Shown here one piece after another: positions 25,302 to 38,224 of a stretch of 64,000 nucleotides of DNA. This stretch comes from Nitrosomonas sp. Nm166 (GTDB lineage: Bacteria; Pseudomonadota; Gammaproteobacteria; Burkholderiales; Nitrosomonadaceae). Made by a program: the position numbers and the translations under genes. The DNA is taken from assembly GCF_900112825.1 (NCBI RefSeq), contig NZ_FONE01000010.1, positions 1 to 64,000 of the forward strand. The letters run 5' to 3'. Each line of letters opens with the position of its first letter. Positions within the stretch are counted from its first letter, which is position 1. The notes under the pieces were generated by a model. It did no database searches. It saw only the letters and a program-made list of their open reading frames with translations, and was not told where the DNA came from.

Positions 25302-27791
25302 TTAAGAACGAGGCGTGCGCTTCGGTCTCGGGGAAGTGAATAAACCCTCACTAATGTTTATTTTGGCTGCAGTATGCTCAGTGGGCTGAGACAGGATCGT
25401 AGCGGTATTTACGGACACGAACTTGGCAGCAAGTGCCTCTGCACTGACCGCGATATCTTCCAACCCCATGACGAAGACTGGTTTTTCTCGCTCCTCGATT
25501 TTGACTTCTTCTCTTCCTGTTTCTTCTGATATGTTGCCAGCGAGTGCCGGAGGATACGGAGGGTTAACGGTTTCTTCCAGGTTTTCGAAACCTGCAAAGA
25601 AAAATTCTTTCTCCTCCTCCTTGCCGTCTTCTTTTTTACCTTCACCTTCTGGGATAGTACTGGGAGGGATAGGTACAGGAGGGATGGGCATAGCGCCAGG
25701 AATTATTGGACAACACGGAGAGTAGCGGGTAACGGTTTGTTTGTACAGTTTTTCCGTGTACTCGATTCCCAGTCCGCTGATGGTGACATCCCATTTAATA
25801 ATGAAGTCCTGTTGAATCTGTCTGCCGGGTTGGGATCGCTCTTTCGGAGGCTCAGGAGCTTTAGGCCGGATTGGTGGTTCGCCTTGTGCTTTCTTATTCC
25901 AATTATTCCAATCCTCTAAAAACTTCTCCGCGGCTTTTTTGTATTCTTTTAACTTGCGCTGATAATCCAATTCTTCTTCGGCGACACAGGAGTTATTTGC
26001 TTTTGCTGGCGCTGTTATGACATCCACCTCTAATGTCAGGGAAACCGTGCCGAGAGTGGGAATGGGAATGCCTGCGCTTTTCGGCCCGTAGAGCTTGGGT
26101 GCCTGCTGCTCGATTTGGATCGAATCGAAATTCTCACAGTTACCGATACAGGTGAAGTTTGTCACTAATTCAGGGTTGATTGCGTCAACAATATCTTTTA
26201 TCTGCTGTTTTGTTATTCGTATTTTTCCAACTAATGGAACTTCTGGAATTATTGGGTTGATGTTCTCGTCTATAAATTTAAAAGCCATATCGACAAGCCC
26301 CTGCTTGGTGAAGCCAAACGTGGCATCTTCTTCCAACTCACCAAACATCATGATCTTCTCGTCTGGGCTAACCTTTGTCTCTTCGTCAGAACCATTCATT
26401 CTCAATAACAAGGTTTGCGCCATTTGCCCCAATGCGGGAAGATTAAAGGCGAGCAAGGATAGGTTGGAAAAATTGATGTCGCGAAGTCCCGGTGTCATGT
26501 GCGCTAAGCCAGTCATATCAAACGCCAGGTCGGGCAGATAAAACGCATTAACATCCCTGTCCGGAGTCGGCATTTCCGGCCAGGACACTGAACCTACCGG
26601 CACCAGCATCTCAATCGGCGGAGCGGAAACCTGCGGCTGCTCGAGCGAGGTTTCATTGATTCCGAAAGGGCTTGGAGATTCTTCCAGAGTGGGAAGGCTC
26701 ATTATTTCCACGTCCGGCATTTCTTCTTGCACGACTGCTGTGAATTCGGCAGGAAGTAGCGTACCCCTCAGGAGTGGGTAGCGAAGTCCCTGTGTCGAAT
26801 GGGCAACCCCGCCCAGCTCAAACAGTACATCGCTCAAATAAAAGGGTGTCCGGGTCTCCTGCTCCACATCACAACCCTCAGTGCAGCTCACGTAGCCAGC
26901 TGCCACAATAGTCAGATATTCGAGTACCGTGAAGACGTGATTTTGGGTGTACGGCCAGGGTTGGCGGAAGTCGGTTCGAGCTATGAAAAGGATGGCGTTT
27001 CCATCACTTTTTCCGGAAGGGTAATGATCGTGCCACGGCCGAGGTATTAAGTTCTTATCTTTGACCTGGTTGGTTTTCCTGAATTTGTTGACGCACTTCG
27101 TGCTGTATGGAATGACGAGATCCGGAGGCACTCCCGGTTCTCCGATTCTCTCGAAAACCGTATCGAGAACCTTTACCCCCTTTTTTCGGGGACCGACGAC
27201 CCGCCTCAAGCCGTGGGCCAGTTCGTGCGCCAGCATCAAGGGACTTGCTCGATCGTATCGATTCAACCCGATGAGCGGTTCTGTTTGGTGATTGGCGCTG
27301 GCATGCACTCTGGTGCCCGCAGGGTGGAGGGGGACCCACCACTCGTCCAGAAATAGCACAATGAGTTTCTTTGGCTGCGCAGTGGCAATGACACTATAGA
27401 TGTCCATTACTGTTTCTTGGACTTTGACGTATGTCTCCTGGAGTGCTCCCTTTCCCTTTGGGATCTGGATGGTCCGAGACTCATAGAGCTTAAGGAGGGT
27501 CTCGAGCTCCTTCTTTTTCTTTTCGAACTCCCTCGTTCTCTCCTCAAACTTCTTCTCTTTCTCGCCGGGCTTGCGCAGCGGGGGATCGAGCGCAAATTCC
27601 TTGAATGTCAGTTCGATGCAATACTTCCTGAACCATGTCTTTGCGTCTGTGATTTGCTGACTCGCTTCGGCCTCAGTCCATTCTATCGGTAGACGAAACC
27701 AGATCACCTCTGCAGAGCATTTGCACTCCACCTCGAAGTTTTTGATATCCCGGTCGTTCTCGATGGTGTCGTCTATGAAGGGTGGTCTCAT
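25302..27791 (-). CDS. large zincin-like protein with PGL-type repeats
   Basis: The 829-aa protein is not assigned to a family. A HELAHGLRRVVG motif (HExxH at residues 189-193) points to a zinc metalloprotease core in the N-terminal third, after a charged coiled-coil (~80-105). Two copies of a module follow: FYLSDVLFELGGVAHSTQGL (~317) and FYLPDLAFDMTGLAHMTPGL (~414). A third copy lies in the upstream neighbour. The rest is Pro/Glu/Lys-rich, with paired Cys residues (FTCIGNCENF, SPCCPII). There is no signal peptide. It is the last gene of a three-gene operon behind the capsid-fold gene. The third zinc ligand was not identified, so activity is uncertain. Confidence 0.65.
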   Translation of the reverse strand: MRPPFIDDTIENDRDIKNFEVECKCSAEVIWFRLPIEWTEAEASQQITDAKTWFRKYCIELTFKEFALDPPLRKPGEKEKKFEERTREFEKKKKELETLLKLYESRTIQIPKGKGALQETYVKVQETVMDIYSVIATAQPKKLIVLFLDEWWVPLHPAGTRVHASANHQTEPLIGLNRYDRASPLMLAHELAHGLRRVVGPRKKGVKVLDTVFERIGEPGVPPDLVIPYSTKCVNKFRKTNQVKDKNLIPRPWHDHYPSGKSDGNAILFIARTDFRQPWPYTQNHVFTVLEYLTIVAAGYVSCTEGCDVEQETRTPFYLSDVLFELGGVAHSTQGLRYPLLRGTLLPAEFTAVVQEEMPDVEIMSLPTLEESPSPFGINETSLEQPQVSAPPIEMLVPVGSVSWPEMPTPDRDVNAFYLPDLAFDMTGLAHMTPGLRDINFSNLSLLAFNLPALGQMAQTLLLRMNGSDEETKVSPDEKIMMFGELEEDATFGFTKQGLVDMAFKFIDENINPIIPEVPLVGKIRITKQQIKDIVDAINPELVTNFTCIGNCENFDSIQIEQQAPKLYGPKSAGIPIPTLGTVSLTLEVDVITAPAKANNSCVAEEELDYQRKLKEYKKAAEKFLEDWNNWNKKAQGEPPIRPKAPEPPKERSQPGRQIQQDFIIKWDVTISGLGIEYTEKLYKQTVTRYSPCCPIIPGAMPIPPVPIPPSTIPEGEGKKEDGKEEEKEFFFAGFENLEETVNPPYPPALAGNISEETGREEVKIEEREKPVFVMGLEDIAVSAEALAAKFVSVNTATILSQPTEHTAAKINISEGLFTSPRPKRTPRS

Positions 27792-27861
27792 GTTGTGCGT
27801 TTCCCGCCTTATTTATCCGCTGCTGTGCTTTGATCCGGATCGAAGATGGCTATTTCTTCCC

Positions 27862-29337
27862 CTATTTCCCCCGACAAGGTTCAAGAAACTTGTGAGCAAA
27901 GTCTTGGATGATCTTGCACTGAGAGGGCAGAATGCGGTCGCCTGTATAGGTTTTCTGCATGATATTGTTATCCTGATCCGAGCTTGTATCTTTCTTGTAT
28001 TCATCATCGACCTTTTTCATGTTATCGATGAGTTTCATACGATCAGGGCTGTCTTTGTTTTTGGGGCCTGTGGGGTCCTTCTCGTCTATGGGGTCATCGG
28101 GGGCTGGGATTTTGTCTTTGACGTGAAATTCGTGCCCCGTGGAGTGGATTACTTCGTGGGCGATATTTCTTCCCAAATCTCCTTCGACGACCCCCATGGG
28201 CGTATAAGGTTCTCCTATTGCGCCAGAGTTTTTCTGCTTGCTGTACCCCTTTGTCTCTATGCCAGGTAAGTCCGGGTTTGCTTTTGATTGTTGGACGTCA
28301 TTCGCGTAGAAGAGATGGATGCATTGGCGGTTGAACTCAGCGCGAAAATGGACTTCCAGCGTCACAAACAGCCAATCGATCGGATCCGGATCACTTTCAC
28401 CATAAACAATGCCGTTCGTAAACACCAGCTCAGCCAGCTTCTTGGTGCCACCCCCGGGCTGGTCAGGAGCAACGACCTTGCTGGTGTCGAGAACATACAC
28501 TTTGCAAAGATCGAGTTGCATGGCGGTACAGGGACTGGCTTTGAAAATCTTGTTTGCCTCCCGGATGTCTTTGGCTATGCTATCTACTGCTTGCTGCGTG
28601 GGGGTTCCAAGGGCCTTATTGAATCCTCCCCAGTCGGTCGCGCCCTGTGCATGCTTGTGGCCTCCTTTGGCACCGGTCAAGATCCACGCAATCACACACC
28701 AGCCCGGGATTGCAGGGTCGCCCGCAATCTTAGGCGGGATTGTCCCTTGAGACGTTTCCGGAATCGTGACAACCTTGCCGTTACCTTTGGCTTTGCCGTT
28801 GCCTTTGTCCTCATCTTCATTTCCGCCATCACCGGCAAAGCGAAGCATGAGTTGATCTATCGGCAAGCCAGTAAGTTGCAGCAGCCCCGGCGTCATATGC
28901 TTAACCCCGCTCAAATTGAGCGTCAGGTCGGTGAGATAAATCGCCCCGGCTTCTTCCTTTCTCCCAACCTCTGTCAGCGGTTTTGGGAGCACTTCCGGTG
29001 TCATCCAGGAAACGTCCTTCCACTTCGGTTCAATCGGCACCGCAAGCTGTGGCTCGGGAAATTCCTCCGGCCATACTTCAGTGGGCATCTCCGGCATCGG
29101 CCTCTCCACAGGCGGTCTCTCCATTTCGGCAGGCCCTGGGAAATCTTCCGGGGCGGCCGGCGGTAGCACCTCCGTAGAGGGAGCGAATTCCCGTGCGGCC
29201 TTCAGGAATTCTGCCGGTATTGCTGCACTGCGCAATAGTTCAAGCGCCTGCGGCGAGATTTTCATTGTTCGTCTGCCACGGGTTCGGGTTTCGGGCTGGC
29301 AATCAGGACACGGCCGTTCGTCTTCCTTTCTGGGCAT
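27862..29337 (-). CDS. zincin-like protein sharing the PGL module
   Basis: The 491-aa protein begins with a Cys-containing basic segment (CPDCQP) and a Pro/Glu-rich region to ~120. The module IYLTDLTLNLSGVKHMTPGL (~131) matches the two copies in the downstream neighbour. The C-terminal half holds NIAHEVIHSTGHEFH (HExxH at 394-398 with Gly and further His residues), close to a metzincin HExxHxxGxxH but with the last His one residue out of register. This suggests a metalloprotease or a derivative of one. AGAGGAG before the ATG at 29337 fixes the start. No export signal is seen. The capsid-fold gene ends 33 bp upstream of its start; the next zincin gene begins 70 bp downstream. Confidence 0.65.
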   Translation of the reverse strand: MPRKEDERPCPDCQPETRTRGRRTMKISPQALELLRSAAIPAEFLKAAREFAPSTEVLPPAAPEDFPGPAEMERPPVERPMPEMPTEVWPEEFPEPQLAVPIEPKWKDVSWMTPEVLPKPLTEVGRKEEAGAIYLTDLTLNLSGVKHMTPGLLQLTGLPIDQLMLRFAGDGGNEDEDKGNGKAKGNGKVVTIPETSQGTIPPKIAGDPAIPGWCVIAWILTGAKGGHKHAQGATDWGGFNKALGTPTQQAVDSIAKDIREANKIFKASPCTAMQLDLCKVYVLDTSKVVAPDQPGGGTKKLAELVFTNGIVYGESDPDPIDWLFVTLEVHFRAEFNRQCIHLFYANDVQQSKANPDLPGIETKGYSKQKNSGAIGEPYTPMGVVEGDLGRNIAHEVIHSTGHEFHVKDKIPAPDDPIDEKDPTGPKNKDSPDRMKLIDNMKKVDDEYKKDTSSDQDNNIMQKTYTGDRILPSQCKIIQDFAHKFLEPCRGK

Positions 29338-29370: not shown

Positions 29371-30384
29371 TCATCCCTTACGCTTCGAGCTATAGCCGTC
29401 GCCTTTCGGAATCGTTGCGTTCTTGATCACTGCAAGGGCACAGGCACTGCCCAGCGCAATTCCCACCGGCATCGTCAGGTGGTACACCAGCGTGGAAGCG
29501 TCTGCCTGGATGGTGGAGCGGGTAATAATGCTGCGTGCCTTCTCCGGCATGATGCCATGCAGATTTCCCTGCCCTAAGACAAAAAACCAGATGTTGGTTG
29601 CGACCGATGGATCAAACCCGTCCAGATTGAGGGCTTTTTCCGGCGGAATCAGTTTGTCCGGCTTACTGCCGTCACATGCATAGATCTGGTTGAGGTCGTT
29701 GATATAAACAGGTGCGCCGTCGAACTTGAGCACTTGCTGCATTCTGCTGCTGCCATCGGGGCCGGGAAAGGTCATTTCTTCATACTCTGGCGCCACTGCC
29801 CGGTTCCAGTAGGCGGCATGGATTGCGCGTTTACCGATGCTGCTGGTGAAGATCACTGTGTGTCGGCCATCGTTCGTGCGCACCATCTCCTTGGCACTGT
29901 CCATATCTTCCAGCGTCAGCTCGCGTCCTCCCAGATCGACTACTTTCGAAGGATCCACCAGCTTCAGCAGGCCATCGAATTCATCCGGGTTGACCGATGA
30001 GTCACCGCTTTCGAACAATGTCCAGAACTTGTACAGCAGCTCCCGCACCGCCAGCGCCATCTGCACCGCGACCTGGTCGTTCACATTTGAGGAGAAGATG
30101 TCCTGCGCTTTGTAGCAGACGCGGAACTGCGTAGCAATCTCGGCAAAACGGTAAATCCGGTTGGTGTCATTGGGCTGTTTGGTATCCTCGGCGATGGTGC
30201 CACATTGACCAATAGCTATCCCCGGTATCAGCGGCCCGGTCGTTGCATACCGCAGTGCATCACCTGCGACGGGAAGAAAGGGGAAAGCCGTTGAAAGTTG
30301 TATGCGAAACGGAAAATCTTCCAGTAGCCACTTTGCCAGAACGTCATTAGAAAGCAATCGAGCGTTATTACCTATGGGTTGCAT
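29371..30384 (-). CDS. HK97-fold phage major capsid-like / encapsulin-like protein
   Basis: The 337-aa protein reads like phage major capsid proteins of the HK97 fold. Visible blocks include VAVQMALAVRELLYKFWTLF, NPDEFDGLLKLVDPSK, ELTLEDMDSAKEM with HTVIFTSSIGKRAIHAAY, APVYINDL, VLGQGNLHGIMPEKARSI and a C-terminal GIALGSACALAVIKNATI. The matches are by recognition, not alignment. No portal, protease, terminase or tail gene is nearby, so this may be a domesticated shell protein. The frame opens at TTG 30423, but AGAGGGGA six nt before ATG 30384 fixes the start. It heads the leftward operon with two zincin-like proteins. Confidence 0.6.
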   Translation of the reverse strand: MQPIGNNARLLSNDVLAKWLLEDFPFRIQLSTAFPFLPVAGDALRYATTGPLIPGIAIGQCGTIAEDTKQPNDTNRIYRFAEIATQFRVCYKAQDIFSSNVNDQVAVQMALAVRELLYKFWTLFESGDSSVNPDEFDGLLKLVDPSKVVDLGGRELTLEDMDSAKEMVRTNDGRHTVIFTSSIGKRAIHAAYWNRAVAPEYEEMTFPGPDGSSRMQQVLKFDGAPVYINDLNQIYACDGSKPDKLIPPEKALNLDGFDPSVATNIWFFVLGQGNLHGIMPEKARSIITRSTIQADASTLVYHLTMPVGIALGSACALAVIKNATIPKGDGYSSKRKG

Positions 30385-30537
30385 TATTTTCCCCTCTGGA
30401 TTTTCAAGATAGTTTATAACCAAAGAACGTAAGGTTCTGTATCACCTCTCTTACTTTTGTTTTTCAATCAGCCAGCACTCTATATATTACCTTTGCACTC
30501 AGCTTAGCCGAGTACGTTGATAAAAATCAAGAGTTCT

Positions 30538-31025: not shown

Positions 31026-34000
31026 ATGCGTTATGACATCAGAGGACGAGTCATCGATTCATTTACCGGTGACGGTATAGGCGGTGTGCGTGTCGAAGTG
31101 TGGGACAAGGATTTCATTCTGGACGATTATCTAGGTTCTGCCAGTACAGTGACAGATGGCTCTTTTTCGATCAGTTTTGAAGATAGTGCATTCCATGACT
31201 TATTCTTTGACAGGTGGCCGGATCTCTATTTTAGAGTTTACTGTTACAACGAGCTGCTTGCTTCAACCGAGAGCTCGGTGCTATGGAACATCAGAAATCC
31301 ACAAACTGGCGTCACCATACATGCGGCCCATCCAAAGCCGCTGGCTTGCGATGAGCGTCATATTTATCTGAAAATCGAGCGGATCGAGCATTACAGTCCG
31401 GTCAGACCACAGGAAAAGGTAGTACCTCCAGTGCAATACGGCCGGGATTGCATGCGCGGGGATGGGCATGAGAATGGCTTGATTCCGCAAACAGAAATCG
31501 ATGCACGTGCGCTGACTGCAGTCGTATACCGCGCGTATCTTGACTCAGGTTACCTGATTCCCAAACCCGACAAGCTGATTGCTGCGGATATCAATGAGCC
31601 TGTTTATACTCATCGTGTTCCCGGTACGGTTATTTACACCCGGCCATGTCAGCGGCTGAAAATTCATGTGTGGAATACCGACGATGTGCCGCACTCGCTG
31701 CATATGCATGGATTGCGTTATGGCATCGATTCCGATGGCTCATGGCCGTTTGGCACGCAAGCCGCTCACCATGGCAGCAGATCGGATGCCATCTGCCCGG
31801 GACAAACATGGATTTATACGTTTGATGTTCCTGATAATACGCTGGGTGCCTGGCCATTTCATGATCATACTTACCATCACGATACTAAGATCGATCAGGG
31901 TTTATTCGCTGGTGTGGTGGTGCTTGGTGCATGCGATCGGCCGCCCCGCCACTTCAGGTTTCCATGGGAAGTATTGCGGCCGATTTATCTTGATATCGAG
32001 CGGTTTGAACGATCCCCGGTATTTTTGGATAAGGAAATACCAGAATTATTCGAGTTTGATGAAGAAACCGTTATTCAACTTGCGCCGTATATCCATGCCC
32101 AACGATTGAAAGATGAGACGCGCTTGATCCTCAAGCAGCGGCTTGATTTTCTGGAAGAATTCACCCTCAAGGAATTGGCACTGCCACGGCGTGTCATCAA
32201 TACCGATCATGTACCGGTATTTCTTCATGTGATGTCGAATCCTGAGGCAAAACCGGTATTTGATACGGATGATATCGAAGAACTCGGGGGTGAAGCCGAA
32301 ATCGTGTTCAATACGGCAGGCGATTATGATTATTTCTGCCGCCACCATCCTGAAATGACCGGTATTGTTCATGTTGTGCCCGGAGGGCCTGACCCGGTGA
32401 CGGTCACCATTGCGGCTGGTCCGCCGATGGTGTTTTCGCCTGATGAGGTAACGGTGGGTGTGGGAGGAACGGTCAAATGGATCAACAACAGCAATGCCCA
32501 TCATACCGTTACCTCAGCACAGGGTGCATCGATGCCAACGCACTGCATCAATGGCCGCGGCTTTACCGGCAATACACCCACCATTGTCGGCCGCAGCGGC
32601 CAGCGTATCCGCTGGTATGTATTTAATCTCGATACCAGTCCGACCTGGCACAATTTTCATCCCCATGCCATGCGCTGGAAATTCGGTGGCGAGTATCTCG
32701 ACGTTCGTAGTTTAGGACCGGCGGAATCATTCATCGTCGAAAGTGAAATTCCACCGGTGCTGTTGCTGACCGCCGAGGAGGAAAAAGCGCAATTGCCTGA
32801 ACACCGTCCGCCGGGAGCAACACTGCATCAGCTCAAAGGCGATTTCCTGTTCCATTGTCACGTTCATCACCATATGATGAACGGTATGGTGGGGTTAGTG
32901 CGCGCACGTCAGAGCTTATGGCTGACAGAGGATATGGCGCATGAAATCAGCCACCGCACCGGTTTGCCGCTGGATGATGGCAGCAATGCTTGCCCGGATG
33001 TTAATCCGCACCCTTGCCGCGGCCATGGCGGTGGCCGCTGGGAAGAGGTTCCTGGTGCACCCGAAGTTGCCTTCATGCATTCTGTGCTGTTGCCCAATAC
33101 ACAGCGTGTGCTGTATTGGGGTTACACACGTGCCGATCAGTCGCGCGTATGGGATTACTCAACACTGGCGGGCAGTTATCTGCTGCCAGCTAACCAGCCA
33201 GCCGATTCTCCAGGGTTGGATATCAATACATCCAACCTATGGTCAGCGGAGCATACCATCCTCGATACCGCAGCAGGCACGTTATTGATTCACGGGGGAT
33301 TTTCACCTAACAAAGCATTTACGTTCGATCCGGCATCGTTGACCTGGACCCGGGTTGCCGATACCGTTGGTGACCGTTTCTATGCAACTACCCTGATATT
33401 GGCTGATGGTCGTGCCGTTACACTGTATGGCAACGTCAAAACTATCGAGATCTATACACATGGTGCTGGATGGGCAGCGCCCATTGCGATGCCAGCCAGT
33501 ATGAATCATCATCAGTATTACCCATGGACCTATTTATTGCCTGATGGACGCTTGTTCATTGCCGGACCGCATGATCCAACGCACCGCATCGATCTGGCTG
33601 TGCCAGGCGCGCCAGAAGCGTTCAGCACAATCAACGGAGACCGCAGTACCGGCGGTGAGAAGGGTTCTTCTGTGTTGTTCATATTGCGTCCGCCTGCATA
33701 CCAGCCGATTGCCTGCATTATGGGCGGCAATCCTGCAGCTGCGCAAAAGACGGTTGAAATGATCGACTTATCCGCACCCGTACCTGCATGGACTGCGCTG
33801 CCAGACTTTAATATTCCACGCGCTGAGCAATTTACGGCGACCCTGCTGCCCGACGGACGCATATTTGTTGCGGGTGGCGTGAGCGGTGGCCCTGATGGCG
33901 GCGTCTGCGAGATCTTCGATCCGCGTGATCCCGGCGCTGGATGGGTGATGGGTCCGGCGATGAAGTATGTTCGTACTTATCACTCGTCATTCATTCTGCT

Positions 34001-34391
34001 TGCCGATGGCAGTGTGCTTGCAGGCGGCGATCCACAATCCAATGGTGCGCCTACTCCGCATGAGCGCTTCTTCCCCGACTACTTCGATATGCTGCGCCCG
34101 GTAATTTCCAATGCACCCGCTACGGTCAATTACGGTGCCAGTTTCAACATTGCTACGCCGAATGCCGCCGATATCACGGAAGTGGTGCTGCTACGTGCTG
34201 GTGCGGTAACGCACGGCTTCAACATGTCGCAACGCGGACTTGAATGCGTAGTGAGCGGTATCGGGGCAGGTGTGTTGACGGTTGACATGCCGGCAAATAC
34301 CAATCTTGCCCCGCCAGGCTGGTATTTGTTGTTCATTCTCAACGCCAGTCGTGTTCCTTCCATGGGGCAGTGGGTGCGGGTTACAACATGA
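31026..34391 (+). CDS. multicopper oxidase fused to a galactose-oxidase-like kelch domain
   Basis: The 1121-aa protein starts with a transthyretin/carboxypeptidase-regulatory-like domain (~1-100). A cupredoxin oxidase follows, with copper motifs HSLHMHGLRYG (~220), WPFHDHTYHH (~276), FHPHAMRW (~543) and FHCHVHHHMMNGM (~609). Between them are plastocyanin-like segments (YFCRHHPEM ~436; WINNSNAHHTV ~485). From ~678 a kelch propeller and a DUF1929-like C-terminus resemble galactose oxidase: the YHS (~985) and THGF (~1062) motifs match its Tyr/His and His ligands. The cysteine that would crosslink to tyrosine is not evident, where SNLWSAEH reads in place of an FCxG-type motif. No signal peptide is seen. 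GAGGAGGGAAGG precedes the ATG. It heads the PatG-like cluster. Confidence 0.82.
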   Translation: MRYDIRGRVIDSFTGDGIGGVRVEVWDKDFILDDYLGSASTVTDGSFSISFEDSAFHDLFFDRWPDLYFRVYCYNELLASTESSVLWNIRNPQTGVTIHAAHPKPLACDERHIYLKIERIEHYSPVRPQEKVVPPVQYGRDCMRGDGHENGLIPQTEIDARALTAVVYRAYLDSGYLIPKPDKLIAADINEPVYTHRVPGTVIYTRPCQRLKIHVWNTDDVPHSLHMHGLRYGIDSDGSWPFGTQAAHHGSRSDAICPGQTWIYTFDVPDNTLGAWPFHDHTYHHDTKIDQGLFAGVVVLGACDRPPRHFRFPWEVLRPIYLDIERFERSPVFLDKEIPELFEFDEETVIQLAPYIHAQRLKDETRLILKQRLDFLEEFTLKELALPRRVINTDHVPVFLHVMSNPEAKPVFDTDDIEELGGEAEIVFNTAGDYDYFCRHHPEMTGIVHVVPGGPDPVTVTIAAGPPMVFSPDEVTVGVGGTVKWINNSNAHHTVTSAQGASMPTHCINGRGFTGNTPTIVGRSGQRIRWYVFNLDTSPTWHNFHPHAMRWKFGGEYLDVRSLGPAESFIVESEIPPVLLLTAEEEKAQLPEHRPPGATLHQLKGDFLFHCHVHHHMMNGMVGLVRARQSLWLTEDMAHEISHRTGLPLDDGSNACPDVNPHPCRGHGGGRWEEVPGAPEVAFMHSVLLPNTQRVLYWGYTRADQSRVWDYSTLAGSYLLPANQPADSPGLDINTSNLWSAEHTILDTAAGTLLIHGGFSPNKAFTFDPASLTWTRVADTVGDRFYATTLILADGRAVTLYGNVKTIEIYTHGAGWAAPIAMPASMNHHQYYPWTYLLPDGRLFIAGPHDPTHRIDLAVPGAPEAFSTINGDRSTGGEKGSSVLFILRPPAYQPIACIMGGNPAAAQKTVEMIDLSAPVPAWTALPDFNIPRAEQFTATLLPDGRIFVAGGVSGGPDGGVCEIFDPRDPGAGWVMGPAMKYVRTYHSSFILLADGSVLAGGDPQSNGAPTPHERFFPDYFDMLRPVISNAPATVNYGASFNIATPNAADITEVVLLRAGAVTHGFNMSQRGLECVVSGIGAGVLTVDMPANTNLAPPGWYLLFILNASRVPSMGQWVRVTT

Positions 34392-34519
34392 TTGTTACAG
34401 CTAAGGTCTGTTTATAAGTAAGAAGAAAGATGCGGCGATAGTGAACTCTTTATTGCTGAAGAGAATCTAATTAAAGGATACGTAATCAGTTGATTTAACA
34501 GTAAAAAGGAGCAAAAATT

Positions 34520-34618
34520 ATGGTAATGACAAAAGACTGCTCTTTTCGCTTGACAATAAAAGGATTAAGAAAAATCCATGACGCCGCTGGAGTTGGTCAA
34601 GCTTACTGCATTACTTAA
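34520..34618 (+). CDS. short upstream ORF overlapping the protease start
   Basis: A 32-codon frame (MVMTKDCSFRLTIKGLRKIH...) begins 6 nt after AAAAGGAGC, a better ribosome-binding site than that of the protease. It overlaps the first 41 bp of the protease gene in another frame. It may be a leader peptide that couples translation, or simply a chance frame. Confidence 0.3.
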   Translation: MVMTKDCSFRLTIKGLRKIHDAAGVGQAYCIT

Positions 34619-35453
34619 CCAGACGCGCGGCAGGCGTGATGTGCGGATCGGTCTCATTGATGGTCCGGTGGCGATGAATCATCCTGAGCTTGCCAGTCAG
34701 CATATTCGCGAGATCGCCGGAAGCGGTAGCGGTGCCTGCGCGCAGGCGGGCAGCATAGCCTGTTCGCACGGTACTTTTGTAGCCGGAATCTTAAGCGCAG
34801 AGCGGGGTTCTTTCGCTCCGGCTATCTGCCCCGATTGCACATTACTGATTCGTCCCATTTTTTCCGAGACGATATCCGGGCGTGAATACCTGCCCAGCGC
34901 GAAACCCGAGGAACTGGCTGCGGCGATTATTGAATGTATTGCAGAAGGGGCGCATTGCATCAATTTGAGCCTTGCGCTGGCACAGCTTTCGTCAAAAGGA
35001 GAGCATGAGTTAGAGCTGGCGCTGGATCATGCCACCAAACGCGGCGTCATTATCGTCGCTGCGGCAGGCAACCAAGGCACACTCGGCAGCACCGCCATCA
35101 CCCGCCATCCATGGATTATCCCGGTAGTCGCTTGCAATCTTCAAGGCAGACCGATGAATGAGTCGAATCTGGGCAATTCAATCGGAAAACGCGGTTTATG
35201 CGCACCTGGCGACGCTGTTACCAGTTTAAATGCGGCAGGACAGTTACTCACCCTGGGCGGAACGAGTGTTGCTGTACCTTTTGTGACCGGTGCGATTGCG
35301 CTGCTGTGGTCAGAGTTTCCTGCGGCAACGGCGGCACAAATCAAACTGGCCATCACCCAGGCTGTCTTACCACGACGAGCCTCGGTGGTTCCACCGTTAT
35401 TGGATGCCGCGGCAGCCTACCAAGTTTTGTTAACAATGAACGCGAGGAGGTAA
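34578..35453 (+). CDS. subtilisin-like serine protease, PatA/PatG type
   Basis: The 291-aa protein is an S8-family protease with an intact triad. The Asp is in RIGLIDGPVAMNHPEL (~25), the His in CSHGTFVAGILSA (~63) and the Ser in LGGTSVAVPFVTGAIALL (~232), and the oxyanion Asn is in VAAAGNQGT. The GLIDGPV opening and short single-domain length resemble the protease domain of the cyanobactin proteases PatA/PatG, which cut precursor peptides. No signal peptide is present, so it would act in the cytoplasm. Stop and next start are 5 bp apart. It probably processes the short leader-bearing ORFs further down, an inference from context. Confidence 0.82.
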   Translation: MTPLELVKLTALLNQTRGRRDVRIGLIDGPVAMNHPELASQHIREIAGSGSGACAQAGSIACSHGTFVAGILSAERGSFAPAICPDCTLLIRPIFSETISGREYLPSAKPEELAAAIIECIAEGAHCINLSLALAQLSSKGEHELELALDHATKRGVIIVAAAGNQGTLGSTAITRHPWIIPVVACNLQGRPMNESNLGNSIGKRGLCAPGDAVTSLNAAGQLLTLGGTSVAVPFVTGAIALLWSEFPAATAAQIKLAITQAVLPRRASVVPPLLDAAAAYQVLLTMNARR

Positions 35454-35458
35454 CTTTC

Positions 35459-35677
35459 ATGACAAAAGAAAGCAAACGGAATGACTCTTTGCACCAGAGC
35501 GAGCACTTGCCTCATCGGATGCGCTTGCCTGGATTTATTAGCGATGAGGAGATCGGGCTGGGCGATGCAATTCAACGGACAACTGCCTATTTTGGCATTA
35601 AGCCCTGTGGCGGCTGCAAACAGCGGGCGGCGATGCTCAACCGCTGGCTGGTTTTCACCCGTCAACAGCCGAGGTAG
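35459..35677 (+). CDS. small protein with CGGC motif
   Basis: The 72-aa protein contains RLPGFISDEEIGLGDAIQR and FGIKPCGGCKQRAAMLNRW. The PCGGCxxR-x-LNRW segment recurs in many small uncharacterised bacterial proteins and could bind metal or be redox-active. AGGAGG lies 6 nt before the ATG, and the gene starts 5 bp after the protease stop, so it is translated with it. The PGF tripeptide also occurs in the leader-bearing ORFs, though in a different setting. No function is known to me. Confidence 0.72.
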   Translation: MTKESKRNDSLHQSEHLPHRMRLPGFISDEEIGLGDAIQRTTAYFGIKPCGGCKQRAAMLNRWLVFTRQQPR

Positions 35678-35744
35678 CGAAATCATTTGCATGGGGATTC
35701 ACAAGCTAGTTAAGTAACACAAGACTTATTACGAAGGAGAAAGT

Positions 35745-36689
35745 ATGAACGAACAGACTGAAACGATAGAGCAGCCAGTAGCGCAAGCGGAGCATGATAT
35801 AATGGCAAGCCCATCTTCTCCAGATGTCCGCCAAAATGCCGCAATTCTTCCGCAGGTGGAAGGCGGTGCCTGTGGCTGTAGCGGGGCTGCCGGTTCGATG
35901 CTCCCCAATGGTACTGGCACGGTTTCTTATGTCTATGCTATCGGCCGGGTGGAAGCACGCTTCCCGAATCTGGCAGCGGAAAAGGAATTTGCCCAGGCGA
36001 CGGGACGGGCAGATACCGCCGGGAAGACCGATCAACAAACCTTCCACGCCGTCTTGTCCAAGCGCGAGAACCGCTACCTGGTGCGCCAGCTTTGCTGGGT
36101 GCTGACTATCCAAGGACTCGAAACCTATCTGTTGCAGCCGCGCGACCCGGCGGACATCGATCTGCTGGTGGAAGCGATCCGTCCTGCCCCTACACCCAAT
36201 GACATCGATGTCGTCATTGGCCTGCGTGGCCCCATTGCTCCGCCGCAGATGTGCAATGGATTGATGGTGCCCATCGTCCTGTTCGACCAGATCTATTCCT
36301 TTGATCGCGATACGCTCATCAAGGCTATCCCCAAGCCAGAAAAGACCACCGATGCGCAGTTCGGCCCGGCGGCTGAAGAGCTGTTCAATCGGATCATGCA
36401 GATGACAGACAATGCTGGCGCAACTGATGAGCATCGTGTCTTGAATTACCTCGTCATGCGCTATCCCGCCATTTATGCAAAGACAGTCGAGCAATTTGCC
36501 AAGGATTTTTCATTGACTGGCGTGGAAGTGCGTCCCTCGCCCTTGAGCAGCACGCGCAACATCGTCGATGTGATCTTTTCCTATACCAATCGTAATACCG
36601 ATTTCACGGAGAAATTTTTTGTGCGTGTCGACGTGACCGAGGAGTTTCCGTTCCTCGTTGCCAAGATGTCGCCGTACTATGACCGTTAA
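35745..36689 (+). CDS. PatG C-terminal-domain-like protein (cyanobactin maturation family)
   Basis: The 314-aa protein resembles the region that follows the protease domain in PatG-type proteins, here as a separate polypeptide. Recognisable stretches are VSYVYAIGRVEARFPNLAAE (~60), RYLVRQLCWVLTIQGLETYL, DVVIGLRGPIAPPQMCNGLM, VLFDQIYSFD and a C-terminal FVRVDVTEEFPFLVAKMSP. A Gly/Cys-rich linker (GGACGCSGAAGS) lies near residue 45. In cyanobactin pathways the PatG C-terminal region accompanies the macrocyclase, but its function is not settled. AAGGAGAAAGT precedes the ATG. The first leader-bearing ORF starts 29 bp after the stop. Confidence 0.75.
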   Translation: MNEQTETIEQPVAQAEHDIMASPSSPDVRQNAAILPQVEGGACGCSGAAGSMLPNGTGTVSYVYAIGRVEARFPNLAAEKEFAQATGRADTAGKTDQQTFHAVLSKRENRYLVRQLCWVLTIQGLETYLLQPRDPADIDLLVEAIRPAPTPNDIDVVIGLRGPIAPPQMCNGLMVPIVLFDQIYSFDRDTLIKAIPKPEKTTDAQFGPAAEELFNRIMQMTDNAGATDEHRVLNYLVMRYPAIYAKTVEQFAKDFSLTGVEVRPSPLSSTRNIVDVIFSYTNRNTDFTEKFFVRVDVTEEFPFLVAKMSPYYDR

Positions 36690-36718
36690 ACCTAATCAAC
36701 CGAAAAAGGAGATGTGAA

Positions 36719-36958
36719 ATGAATACTGGGAACATACCAAGATTTACCGCTGAAGCTTCGTTCTATAGGAGTAGAAGATACTCCCAAGTAGGTGCGATGT
36801 TGACTGATCTTCAGCAAGGAGGGAGAGTTTTACTTCACCCCGCTGCCCGGCCAATCGCTTATTGTTCAATGAAGGGATGTTGCGTCGACCTAAGAGACCT
36901 GGGATTTCCGCGTATTTGCTGTAATGGGGACGAGTGTGGACCCGATGTGCTAATTTAG
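36719..36958 (+). CDS. candidate precursor peptide 1 (PGFTAE-type leader)
   Basis: A 79-aa ORF with a good ribosome-binding site (AAAAAGGAGATG). It begins NIPRFTAEASFYRSRRYS, the shared leader of four neighbouring ORFs, here with Arg in place of Gly. The tail holds six Cys residues, two of them in CC pairs (KGCCVDL, RICCNGDEC). Such a conserved N-terminus with a divergent Cys-rich tail fits a RiPP precursor or secreted Cys-rich peptide, but the cleavage site is unknown. Confidence 0.65.
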   Translation: MNTGNIPRFTAEASFYRSRRYSQVGAMLTDLQQGGRVLLHPAARPIAYCSMKGCCVDLRDLGFPRICCNGDECGPDVLI

Positions 36959-36986
36959 GTTCGTGCAAAAAGGAAGGAGATATGAG

Positions 36987-37298
36987 ATGAAAATAATGAA
37001 TATGCCTGGGTTTACTGCAGAAAACTCATTCTATCACACGAGCAGGCGCTATCAGATGACGAGCTCTATTCACAGAATCGAATTCAACGCAAGCTTGGTT
37101 CAACCATCGGCCGCGATTTACAGCGGAGGAAGATTTGTGTGCTATGGTGAAGTAACAGAAGAAGGATTCATCAACTGTTATCCGCCCGATGGCGGGCTCT
37201 CCGAACCAGCCGAGCTCGTTTGTGGCCCGTGTATAAGCGGGCGACAGCGCTGCGGTATACCGGGTGTTGGTTTTAGCTGGGGGCCATGCATCGACTGA
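36987..37298 (+). CDS. candidate precursor peptide 2 (PGFTAE-type leader)
   Basis: A 103-aa ORF that starts MKIMNMPGFTAENSFYHTSR and then RYQMTSS, giving the best match to the leader consensus. The tail carries six Cys (FVCYGE, FINCYPP, LVCGPCISGRQRC, WGPCID). AAGGAGATATGAG precedes ATG 36987; an upstream in-frame codon at 36963 is not favoured. It is 28 bp after precursor 1. Confidence 0.68.
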   Translation: MKIMNMPGFTAENSFYHTSRRYQMTSSIHRIEFNASLVQPSAAIYSGGRFVCYGEVTEEGFINCYPPDGGLSEPAELVCGPCISGRQRCGIPGVGFSWGPCID

Positions 37299-37330
37299 GC
37301 CCTTATAAGGCTGATTAGGGATAGAACTTG

Positions 37331-37361
37331 AGGCTGGGTTAGGAAAGCTGTAACCCAACGA
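37331..37361 (+). repeat. 31-bp direct repeat with hairpin, copy A
   Basis: This 31-bp sequence recurs exactly at 37780-37810. Its inner part forms a TGGGTTA...TAACCCA hairpin. Each copy lies just upstream of a leader-bearing ORF (24 bp before precursor 3 and 17 bp before precursor 4). A weaker third relative lies around 37685-37720. They may mark duplication of whole precursor units or act as RNA processing or attenuation sites. Confidence 0.6.
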
Positions 37362-37384
37362 ACTGATTTGAAAGGAGATATAAA

Positions 37385-37648
37385 ATGATGAACACCATGA
37401 ACATACCAGGATTTAATGCGGAATCATCGCTTGGCCCACCAGCTATGGGCATATATCAGAGAAAGGCTGTTTCCGGCAGATTTCCTTCGGAAGGGGGCGG
37501 AGACATTATGCCGCAACTTCGTTTCCAGTCGGATCCGGATTTAGGTGCGTACTTGAGATGCAGGGCAAATGGTGGAAGTGATCTTATATGCCGTTTCTTT
37601 GGCGGGCTTCCTCCTTTCACAATCGGTGGCCTCCTGATCGTTGGATGA
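37385..37648 (+). CDS. candidate precursor peptide 3 (PGFTAE-type leader)
   Basis: An 87-aa ORF starting MMNTMNIPGFNAESSLG, with Asn for Thr in the leader. Only two Cys remain in the tail (YLRCRANGGSDLICRFF), and the end is Gly/hydrophobic (GGLPPFTIGGLLIVG). GAAAGGAGATATAAA gives a clear ribosome-binding site. The tail differs completely from peptides 1, 2 and 4, as expected of variable cores. Confidence 0.62.
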   Translation: MMNTMNIPGFNAESSLGPPAMGIYQRKAVSGRFPSEGGGDIMPQLRFQSDPDLGAYLRCRANGGSDLICRFFGGLPPFTIGGLLIVG

Positions 37649-37779
37649 GCGCAGGATGCGTTGAAGTATAAAGGACCGTAGCTTTAGGTTGGTGAAATGA
37701 AGTCGTAACTCAACAAACTGGCACAGCCTTCGCGATCATTCGCTAGGATTCAGAAGTCACTTTTATGCAAGAAGCCCGT

Positions 37780-37810
37780 AGGCTGGGTTAGGAAAGCTGT
37801 AACCCAACGA
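37780..37810 (+). repeat. 31-bp direct repeat with hairpin, copy B
   Basis: This is identical over 31 bp to 37331-37361 and carries the same 7-bp stem. It lies in the 178-bp gap between precursors 3 and 4, immediately before the precursor 4 start. Confidence 0.6.
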
Positions 37811-37826
37811 GCTAATAAGATATGAA

Positions 37827-38224
37827 ATGAACACCATGAATTTACCTGGTTTTACCGGAGAGTTGGTACTCTATCCAACTGCTCGACACTATCAATCGAC
37901 AATTTCAGTCAATCATGAACCGAGCGGAATATCCGTTGTTCCATCTGTCCTCCAAAGCTGGTTGGGCGATTCGTCGAGTATAGGATTGAGCTGGGGCCGC
38001 TGTTTGGTCACGCACCTGTTTGGAAAGGTGGTTCGGCAGGAGGTGGTTTGCCAATTGGAGGTTTTGACGCATCAGGCGGAGGAGGAACCACCATGGCACA
38101 AGACTGTATGTCTGGCTGCCTACAAGATTGCCATGATAAGTGTATTAATAGCAATCAGCCTTTGAAGTGCTATTTCACGTGTAAAAGTAGTACTTGTTTG
38201 CGAATTTGCTACGGGATAGGTTGA
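37827..38224 (+). pseudogene. frameshifted precursor peptide 4 with CxxxC-rich core
   Basis: The ATG at 37827 opens MNTMNLPGFTGELVLYPTAR, then HYQSTIS, a leader match. The same frame continues to 38165 as unlikely sequence. The frame two bases on, from about 37990 to the TGA at 38222-38224, instead encodes LGPLFGHAPV, a Gly-rich linker (GGSAGGGLPIGGFDASGGGG) and an eight-Cys tail (DCMSGCLQDCHDKC, then LKCYFTCKSSTCLRIC). The Cys are mostly spaced CxxxC. A shift between roughly 37920 and 37990 joins leader and core. No slippery heptamer is seen there, so mutation or an assembly error is likelier than programmed frameshifting. Confidence 0.6.

What the first reader, a model, noticed from the sequence alone, without database searches (positions are those of the whole stretch)
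31026..38224. PatA/PatG-like peptide-maturation cluster with a copper-oxidase fusion
A PatA/PatG-type subtilisin (34578), a separate PatG-C-terminal-like protein (35745), a small CGGC protein (35459) and four short ORFs with a common leader lie in one direction behind a 1121-aa multicopper/galactose-oxidase-like protein. Seen: order, motifs and ribosome-binding sites. Known: PatA and PatG process cyanobactin precursors. Inferred: this is a RiPP-like pathway in which the oxidase modifies the peptides. Cyanobactin loci are not known to me with such an oxidase.
Basis: partly seen in the sequence, partly recalled or inferred. Interest (0 to 1): 0.9.

Follow-up and report, generated by a model that had tools for sequence, protein, structure and literature searches.

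The report
Leader-guided maturation of cysteine-rich bacterial peptides
A Nitrosomonas genome carries a three-gene processing kit, related to part of the machinery that makes cyanobactin peptides, beside four small precursor genes that share one leader; the kit and leader recur in many bacteria and probably trim off the leader to release peptides with paired cysteines, while the copper oxidase next door looks like an unrelated neighbour.

Summary
In detail: an S8 protease (34578), a CGGC protein (35459), a stand-alone PatG_D/PatG_C protein (35745) and four leader ORFs in a row. Relatives recur: of 80 fetched loci, 67 have S8 just upstream, 56 CGGC, 56 a leader ORF downstream. The oxidase role is not: a 90%-identical orthologue lies in a genome without trio or leader. 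Cyanobactin membership fails: no YcaO in this genome, no AYDG in 152 precursors.
New: (i) a second motif, V-x-P-Q, 25-32 residues after the leader's F in 56 of the 59 precursors that show it. (ii) Cysteines counted from there are even in 111 of 115 precursors, 72 of 74 clusters: the leader is probably removed there and the product's cysteines paired. (iii) The PatG-like N-tail carries the same motif plus a Cys pair.
Best reading: leader-guided proteolytic maturation of disulfide-rich peptides by a split PatA-like apparatus; which enzyme does what is inferred.

The parts
34578..35453 (+). S8 subtilisin-like protease, PatA-like, 291 aa, no DUF attached
   Evidence: Asp28, His64, Asn165, Ser230 present in 73 of 73 aligned S8 sequences
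35459..35677 (+). CGGC small protein, 72 aa, with LPGF and CxxC motifs
   Evidence: no Pfam or NCBIfam hit; PHROG 32048 hit 6e-7
35745..36689 (+). Stand-alone PatG_D + PatG_C protein (split PatA/PatG DUF), 314 aa
   Evidence: profile of 36 relatives matches PatG-DUF structure 4uvq, E 1.4e-8
35844..35879 (+). N-tail of the PatG-like protein: I-L-P-Q and C-G-C, like the precursors' V-x-P-Q plus cysteines
   Evidence: 34 of 61 tails have the motif, shuffles mean 4.4, max 12
36719..36958 (+). Leader ORF 1, 79 aa, 6 Cys after residue 30
36987..37298 (+). Leader ORF 2, 103 aa, 6 Cys after residue 30
37385..37648 (+). Leader ORF 3, 87 aa, 2 Cys; product region shared with L010, L012, L013 and L026 (Nitrotoga, Nitrosomonas, Nitrospira by record title)
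37827..38165 (+). Leader ORF 4, 112 aa; probably frameshifted, Cys-rich stretch in another frame to 38224
36833..36844 (+). ORF 1 predicted processing region (LHPA), loose variant of V-x-P-Q
   Evidence: placed by eye; family motif
37098..37109 (+). ORF 2 predicted processing region (VQPS), loose variant
   Evidence: placed by eye; family motif
37505..37516 (+). ORF 3 predicted processing region (IMPQ), the only strict match of the four
37935..37946 (+). ORF 4 predicted processing region (VVPS), loose variant
   Evidence: placed by eye; family motif
31026..34391 (+). Multicopper-oxidase + galactose-oxidase-like protein: neighbour, probably not part of the system

Best explanation
A leader-guided maturation system for disulfide-rich peptides, built from a split PatA-type apparatus. 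SHOWN from sequence: precursors consist of a conserved N-terminal leader (PGFTAEASLYxTxxxY type), a variable linker, often a V-x-P-Q motif, then a Cys-rich region whose cysteines are even in number; they occur with an S8 + CGGC + stand-alone PatG-DUF trio. INFERRED: the PatG-DUF protein, perhaps with the CGGC protein, recognises the leader; the PatA-like S8 protease cuts at or near V-x-P-Q; the product carries disulfides. The CGGC protein has a leader-like LPGF motif and a conserved CxxC and may dock at the same place as a dithiol helper. No further enzyme family recurs widely at the loci, YcaO was tested and is not there, and the copper oxidase is not needed. Export and activity of the products are open; one cargo is a phospholipase A2 domain, so secreted activity is plausible.
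For: Trio and leader recur: of 80 loci S8 just upstream 67, CGGC 56, leader downstream 56; leader hits 135 downstream, 6 upstream, 1 on the other strand (most profile rows come from these loci). Leader/PatG_C co-occurrence 16 of 16 versus 1 of 109 genomes, P 2.7e-19. In four of eight precursor families leader identity .76-.93, linker .36-.62, V-x-P-Q onward .71-.84. [VI]xPQ in 61 of 152 precursors versus 2.2 in shuffles, max 7. Cys parity peaks at 111 of 115 counted from motif +28 to +32, 97 from the motif, 66 from +45; one per cluster 72 of 74, simulation mean 51%, max 72%. V-x-P-Q plus Cys pair in the PatG-like N-tail. PLA2 match starting at residue 41, just behind ITPQ at 37-40, in L085. 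S8 catalytic residues in 73 of 73.
Against: No biochemistry. 13 of 80 loci lack S8 just upstream, 17 lack any CGGC hit, 24 have no leader hit of 18 bits or more within 6 kb downstream (some contigs are short, and weaker leader-like ORFs were seen by eye). Loci L057, L059 and L073 (archaea by title) show neither S8 nor leader; archaeal support for the leader rests on one MAG, L032. Strict [VI]xPQ is absent from 91 of 152 precursors, and three of the four window ORFs have loose variants. [quoted passage not shown] The precursors show no hydrophobic run longer than 6 in their first 35 residues and no transporter is general at the loci (an ABC-type family, named by eye, occurs in 8 of 85), so export is unexplained. 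One parity control is itself above one half (488 of 725), and whole-precursor parity is 95 of 115. Structure prediction failed.
Confidence: 0.72

Rival explanations
1. A cyanobactin pathway variant: heterocyclised and/or macrocyclised peptides, with the oxidase replacing the usual thiazoline oxidase.
For: S8 is nearest to cyanobactin proteases and the DUF to PatG; E[AP]S, as in the PatA site G(L/V)E(A/P)S given in PMC10885120, occurs in the first 25 residues of 59 of 152 precursors.
Against: No YcaO in this genome; 10 of 45 trio genomes have one, but none within 20 kb of a stand-alone DUF on the same contig, the nearest about 46 kb away in G528 beside other, fused PatG_C genes (draft contigs limit this). 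Neither the full PatA site nor AYDG occurs in any of 152 precursors. Cysteine parity fits disulfides, not azoles, and a cut after E-A-S alone would leave linker cysteines in the product.
Confidence: 0.08
2. One reading: the copper oxidase modifies the peptides.
For: Adjacent and co-directional in the window; another galactose-oxidase-like protein precedes the trio in L005/L012; the oxidase lies within 15 kb of the trio in 4 of 8 trio genomes that have it; enrichment 8 of 16 versus 13 of 109.
Against: 13 family genomes have it without PatG_C, one at 90% identity; in 4 of 8 trio genomes it is 0.69 Mb away or on another contig; within the 80 fetched loci a homologue appears only in L012, L017, L020 and weakly L088. 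It recurs beside tyrosinase genes.
Confidence: 0.08
3. A protein-sorting or secretion system: the leader is a targeting signal and S8 a processing peptidase, the cargo ordinary disulfide proteins rather than natural products.
For: The best NCBIfam model for S8 is mycosin of type VII secretion; non-redundant precursors range from 62 to 441 aa and one has a PLA2 domain; 26 of 125 leader hits lie far from the trio.
Against: The mycosin score is far below its cut-off (123 versus 279 bits); no transporter or secretion gene is general at the loci; the nearest solved relatives are cyanobactin proteases.
Confidence: 0.2
4. A protease-gated defence or toxin system: S8 releases toxic Cys-rich peptides on infection or competition.
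For: S8 matches subtilase models of a defence library, best 2e-18; PLA2 cargo.
Against: Such hits may be general subtilase similarity; the other trio proteins have no hit in that library; no partner or neighbourhood recurs.
Confidence: 0.1

Closest known systems
Cyanobactin PatA/PatG maturation proteases (TIGR03895; PatG_D PF18047, PatG_C PF18065)
   Same: PatA-like S8 domain and the C-terminal DUF; leader-bearing precursors
   Different: S8 and DUF are separate genes with a CGGC protein between; no YcaO in the genome; no PatG-type S8 + oxidase protein at the locus; no AYDG or full PatA site in the precursors
QhpE, protease of quinohemoprotein amine dehydrogenase maturation (NF049966)
   Same: S8 model matches at 2.6e-15
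   Different: Far below its cut-off (56 versus 165 bits); other parts of that pathway were not searched for
Dispersed-precursor RiPPs such as prochlorosins (recalled)
   Same: One apparatus and several distant precursors with one leader: 26 of 125 hits, 25 of them in Nitrosospira/Nitrosovibrio
   Different: The leaders gave no Pfam or NCBIfam hit (four window ORFs); lanthipeptide enzymes were not searched by model
Knottins and other disulfide-rich mini-proteins of eukaryotes (recalled)
   Same: Short Cys-rich products; leader or propeptide
   Different: Prokaryotic, with a dedicated trio; no homology was tested beyond Pfam on 14 precursors

Membership tests
PatA/PatG protease family (TIGR03895) | S8 and DUF in one chain, score over the cut-off of 421 bits | tested here: not met
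   S8 95 bits and DUF 29 bits in two proteins
PatG DUF (PF18047 + PF18065) | Both Pfam domains over gathering score | tested here: met
   124.1 vs 27 and 119.3 vs 25.9 bits; 4uvq E 1.4e-8
PatG DUF | Same fold as 4uvq | tested here: inconclusive
   Sequence profile match only; structure jobs failed
Cyanobactin pathway | PatD-type YcaO heterocyclase at the locus (absent in some cyanobactins; recalled) | tested here: not met
   None in G000; none within 20 kb of a stand-alone PatG_C on the same contig in 45 genomes
Cyanobactin pathway | Macrocyclase PatG with its own S8 and oxidase domains | tested here: not met
   DUF-only protein and one S8 gene in the cluster; rest of the genome not searched for it, except that PatG_C occurs once
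Cyanobactin pathway | Precursor with G(L/V)E(A/P)S and AYDG | tested here: not met
   0 of 152 precursors have either
RiPP-like pathway | Conserved leader, variable product region, leader-linked maturation genes | tested here: met
RiPP | Leader removed and product post-translationally modified | not testable with these tools
   Only inferred from parity and motif
QHNDH maturation (QhpE) | QhpE model over cut-off | tested here: not met
   56.4 versus 165 bits
Mycosin of type VII secretion | Model over cut-off | tested here: not met
   123.3 versus 278.75 bits

The most novel reading that the evidence does not exclude
An undescribed class of prokaryotic disulfide-rich RiPP-like products, made across many phyla by one apparatus: the PatG-type DUF, without known function since its structure was solved, is the leader receptor; the CGGC protein mimics the leader (PGFxx[ED]) and hands over disulfides through its CxxC; the S8 protease trims the DUF protein's own substrate-like N-tail and then the precursors at V-x-P-Q.
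Probability: 0.3. Interest if true: 0.92.

Novelty: new variant of a known kind. Interest (0 to 1): 0.83.

Why it matters
The cyanobactin DUF has a solved structure but no known function; its authors report no binding to the most plausible substrates (PMC4259220, abstract). Here the DUF stands alone in a small system with a clear leader motif and a putative cut site, so its function becomes directly testable. The system also points to many unannotated small proteins with paired cysteines in nitrifying, soil and other bacteria: 136 precursors in 76 sequence clusters from 85 loci and a handful of extra stretches.

Tried and rejected
Oxidase as part of the system: judged unlikely, though enriched in trio genomes. 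Cyanobactin heterocyclisation: against it the YcaO search and precursor motifs. Cut after E-A-S as the final cut: disfavoured by parity. Homology of leader and CGGC protein: only a 10-column PGF match, hhalign probability 39%, kept as a lead. Coupling between V-x-P-Q in the DUF tail and in precursors of the same locus: borderline, P = 0.053. A match of the DUF profile to formaldehyde-activating enzyme was not significant (E 0.43). The promoter and terminator scan was no better than shuffles. Structure prediction could not be obtained, so no fold comparison was done.

Rows dropped: L005 and L012 are the same contig and L001-L004 are pieces of known loci, so L001-L005 were left out of the counts from then on (L005 stayed in alignments A1 and A2). 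For whole-genome leader, PatG_C, YcaO and oxidase searches 44 of 80 loci were given. Of 67 CGGC rows 51 were aligned; in L024 and L025 the CGGC reading frame ends before the CxxC (66 of 68 best CGGC ORFs have it). The four precursor families measured are four of the eight printed. The distance and neighbourhood counts were made by hand.

Literature: ten full-text searches of open PubMed Central papers listed nothing that I recognised as this leader or a stand-alone PatG DUF with it; most subscription papers and preprints are not held. Of PMC4259220 I read parts 1 and 2 of 4, not the binding results in full; of PMC10885120 passages; all others only as listings.
Full report
What is there. Downstream of a 1121-aa copper-oxidase/galactose-oxidase-like gene lie, on one strand, an S8 protease, a 72-aa CGGC protein, a 314-aa protein made of PatG_D and PatG_C, and four short ORFs that begin with a common leader. 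At E <= 1 the leader profile (A3, 55 rows, four of them from the window) finds only these four places in the 3.2-Mb genome.

It is a recurring system. A scan of a bacterial and archaeal genome collection with the PatG-like alignment gave 94 relatives, of which the best 80 were kept. By record title they come from Nitrosomonas, Nitrosospira, Nitrotoga, Methylococcaceae, Nitrospira, Brocadia, Acidobacteria, Cyanobacteria, Caldilineaceae, Streptomyces and other actinobacteria, Chitinophagaceae, Planctomycetota and a few archaea. In these 80 loci an S8 gene lies just upstream in 67, a CGGC gene just upstream in 56 (anywhere in 63), and a leader ORF of 18 bits or more within 6 kb downstream in 56; 135 leader hits lie downstream, 6 upstream, 1 on the other strand (the profile was largely built from these loci, so the direction is informative but not independent). 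Among 58 loci with enough flank the numbers are 48, 40 and 40. In 85 loci compared, no neighbour family other than the trio is general; an ABC-type family (named by eye) occurs in 8, an AMP-ligase-like one in 7 and a tyrosinase in 6. PatG-like proteins of the window and of a Mesorhizobium plasmid are 89% identical over 82% of the protein, which suggests horizontal transfer. Archaeal support is thin: L032 has S8 and leader but no CGGC hit; L057, L059 and L073 have neither S8 nor leader.

Is the leader tied to the trio? In the 125 genomes of the family that were searched, PatG_C occurs in 16 and the leader in 17; all 16 have both, and one genome (G567) has a single orphan leader ORF next to an integrase-like gene, named by eye (P 2.7e-19). 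Eight of the 16 (G568-G572, G578, G584, G586) contributed no row to the profile. In a sample of 398 genomes of the phylum the leader occurs only in this genome; PatG_C occurs in one other, in a longer frame with an S8-like part by eye and no leader. In 44 trio genomes (44 of the 80 loci were given) the leader profile hits 125 places in 37 genomes; by hand comparison with PatG_C, 99 lie within about 6 kb of a PatG_C gene and 26 elsewhere, 25 of them in eight Nitrosospira/Nitrosovibrio genomes. I read 18 stretches, distant places and a few near ones: several hold a solitary leader gene, for instance beside a gene that looks like a DNA polymerase in L096, L099 and L101. The apparatus therefore probably acts in trans there.

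Anatomy of the precursors. Columns outside the search pattern are conserved too: Tyr at +15 in 77% of 101 leaders. In four of the eight families printed, identity is high in the leader (.76-.93), lower in the linker (.36-.62) and high again from V-x-P-Q onward (.71-.84). [VI]xPQ occurs in residues 21-60 of 61 of 152 candidates, against a shuffle mean of 2.2, max 7; among 136 candidates of 18 bits or more, 59 show [VILM]xPQ and in 56 of these it starts 25-32 residues after the first F. In the 116 of 152 with a looser form of the motif, Cys makes up 12% of what follows; in the first 30 residues of all 152 it is 0.5%.

Cysteine parity. Of 152 candidates 136 score 18 bits or more; 117 remain after removing near-duplicates, and 115 of these have at least two cysteines. 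Counting from leader motif +28, +30 or +32, the number is even in 111 of 115; from the motif itself 97, from +20 106, from +38 87, from +45 66. With one precursor per BLAST cluster it is 72 of 74, against a simulated mean of 51% and maximum of 72%. Controls: neighbouring proteins with 2-12 cysteines 328 of 585 even; small ORFs with at least four cysteines 488 of 725, a control I think is biased upward by its threshold. Counting after residue 30 of the protein gives 110 of 115, whole precursors 95 of 115. One of the five odd ones after residue 30 is the window's own fourth ORF, which looks frameshifted. The simplest reading is that the product starts near V-x-P-Q and its cysteines are paired, most likely as disulfides; paired metal ligands are not excluded. 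In L085 a phospholipase A2 match (E 2e-9, profile positions 17-64 of 110) begins at residue 41, right behind ITPQ, and 18 cysteines follow residue 30; the nine other precursors in that call gave no Pfam domain.

The apparatus. S8: catalytic Asp, His, Asn and Ser in 73 of 73 aligned sequences, plus C54 in 62, C62 in 64, C84 in 68 and C87 in 65 of 73; only C87 lines up with a cysteine in the solved cyanobactin protease. CGGC: both Cys of CxxC invariant in the 51 aligned, present in 66 of 68 best ORFs, with an LPGF motif that recalls the leader (weak). No CGGC hit was found in the cyanobacterial loci L038, L039, L046 and L088. PatG-like: the profile matches the PatG-DUF structure over residues 8-249 of 276 (4uvq, E 1.4e-8); two Cys are invariant in 58 of 58. 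Its N-tail carries [VILMA]xPQ in 34 of 61 (shuffles 4.4, max 12), with a Cys pair close behind PQ in 31 of 61; the bare motif occurs in 16 of 77 S8, 12 of 61 DUF bodies and 2 of 68 CGGC ORFs. I take this as a hint that the same protease trims the DUF protein.

The oxidase. Homologues with the copper-oxidase region occur in 21 of 125 family genomes (hand count): 8 of 16 with PatG_C, 13 of 109 without. One without (G547) is 90% identical over the whole length, and within its 20-kb stretch only that gene matches the window at DNA level; upstream of it lies a tyrosinase/VWA protein. In six Nitrosospira/Nitrosovibrio loci a tyrosinase-family gene lies upstream of the trio (Pfam-checked in L017), and in two of them the oxidase too. 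Within 15 kb of the trio it occurs in G000, G572, G582 and G584; in G587 it is 0.69 Mb away, in G011, G543 and G586 on another contig. So a separate copper-protein cluster sometimes sits beside the trio.

Known or new. In print, PatA-like enzymes cut after G(L/V)E(A/P)S (PMC10885120, passages), and the PatG DUF has a novel fold and no known role (PMC4259220). This system shares those two protein parts. It lacks YcaO (none in this genome; 10 of 45 genomes have one, none within 20 kb of a stand-alone PatG_C on the same contig), has no S8-plus-oxidase PatG at the locus, and its precursors have neither cyanobactin motif. I file it as a new variant of leader-guided, PatA-type peptide maturation, not as a cyanobactin pathway.

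Noticed in passing
window 25302-29337 (- strand): Two large proteins (829 and 491 aa) share a motif of the type YLxDLxxxxxGxxHMTPGL, and each has an HExxH-like stretch (HELAH, HEVIH); no Pfam or NCBIfam hit (the second given from residue 25 on).
   Followed up: partly
window 29371-30423 (- strand): 350-aa protein that by eye recalls a phage capsid-like protein; not searched in any family library.
   Followed up: no
window 37331-37379 and 37780-37828: 49-nt repeats, 86% identical, in front of leader ORFs 3 and 4; they may reflect duplication of precursor genes.
   Followed up: no
L039:11248-11655, L072:11570-12025, L078:6457-6918: Partial second copies of the PatG-like C-terminal part lie downstream, among leader genes.
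   Followed up: no
G528 contig C12, 153-168 kb: YcaO hits next to PatG_C in long frames (675 and 806 aa): a likely separate azole-type cluster about 40 kb from the stand-alone PatG_C gene.
   Followed up: no
L014, L015, L017, L019, L020, L022: Tyrosinase-family gene and a companion of about 269 aa upstream of the trio in six Nitrosospira/Nitrosovibrio loci, a third of about 161 aa in four of them.
   Followed up: partly
window 35459-35677: The CGGC region matches a phage protein family of unknown function (phrog_32048, 6e-7, residues 32-66).
   Followed up: no
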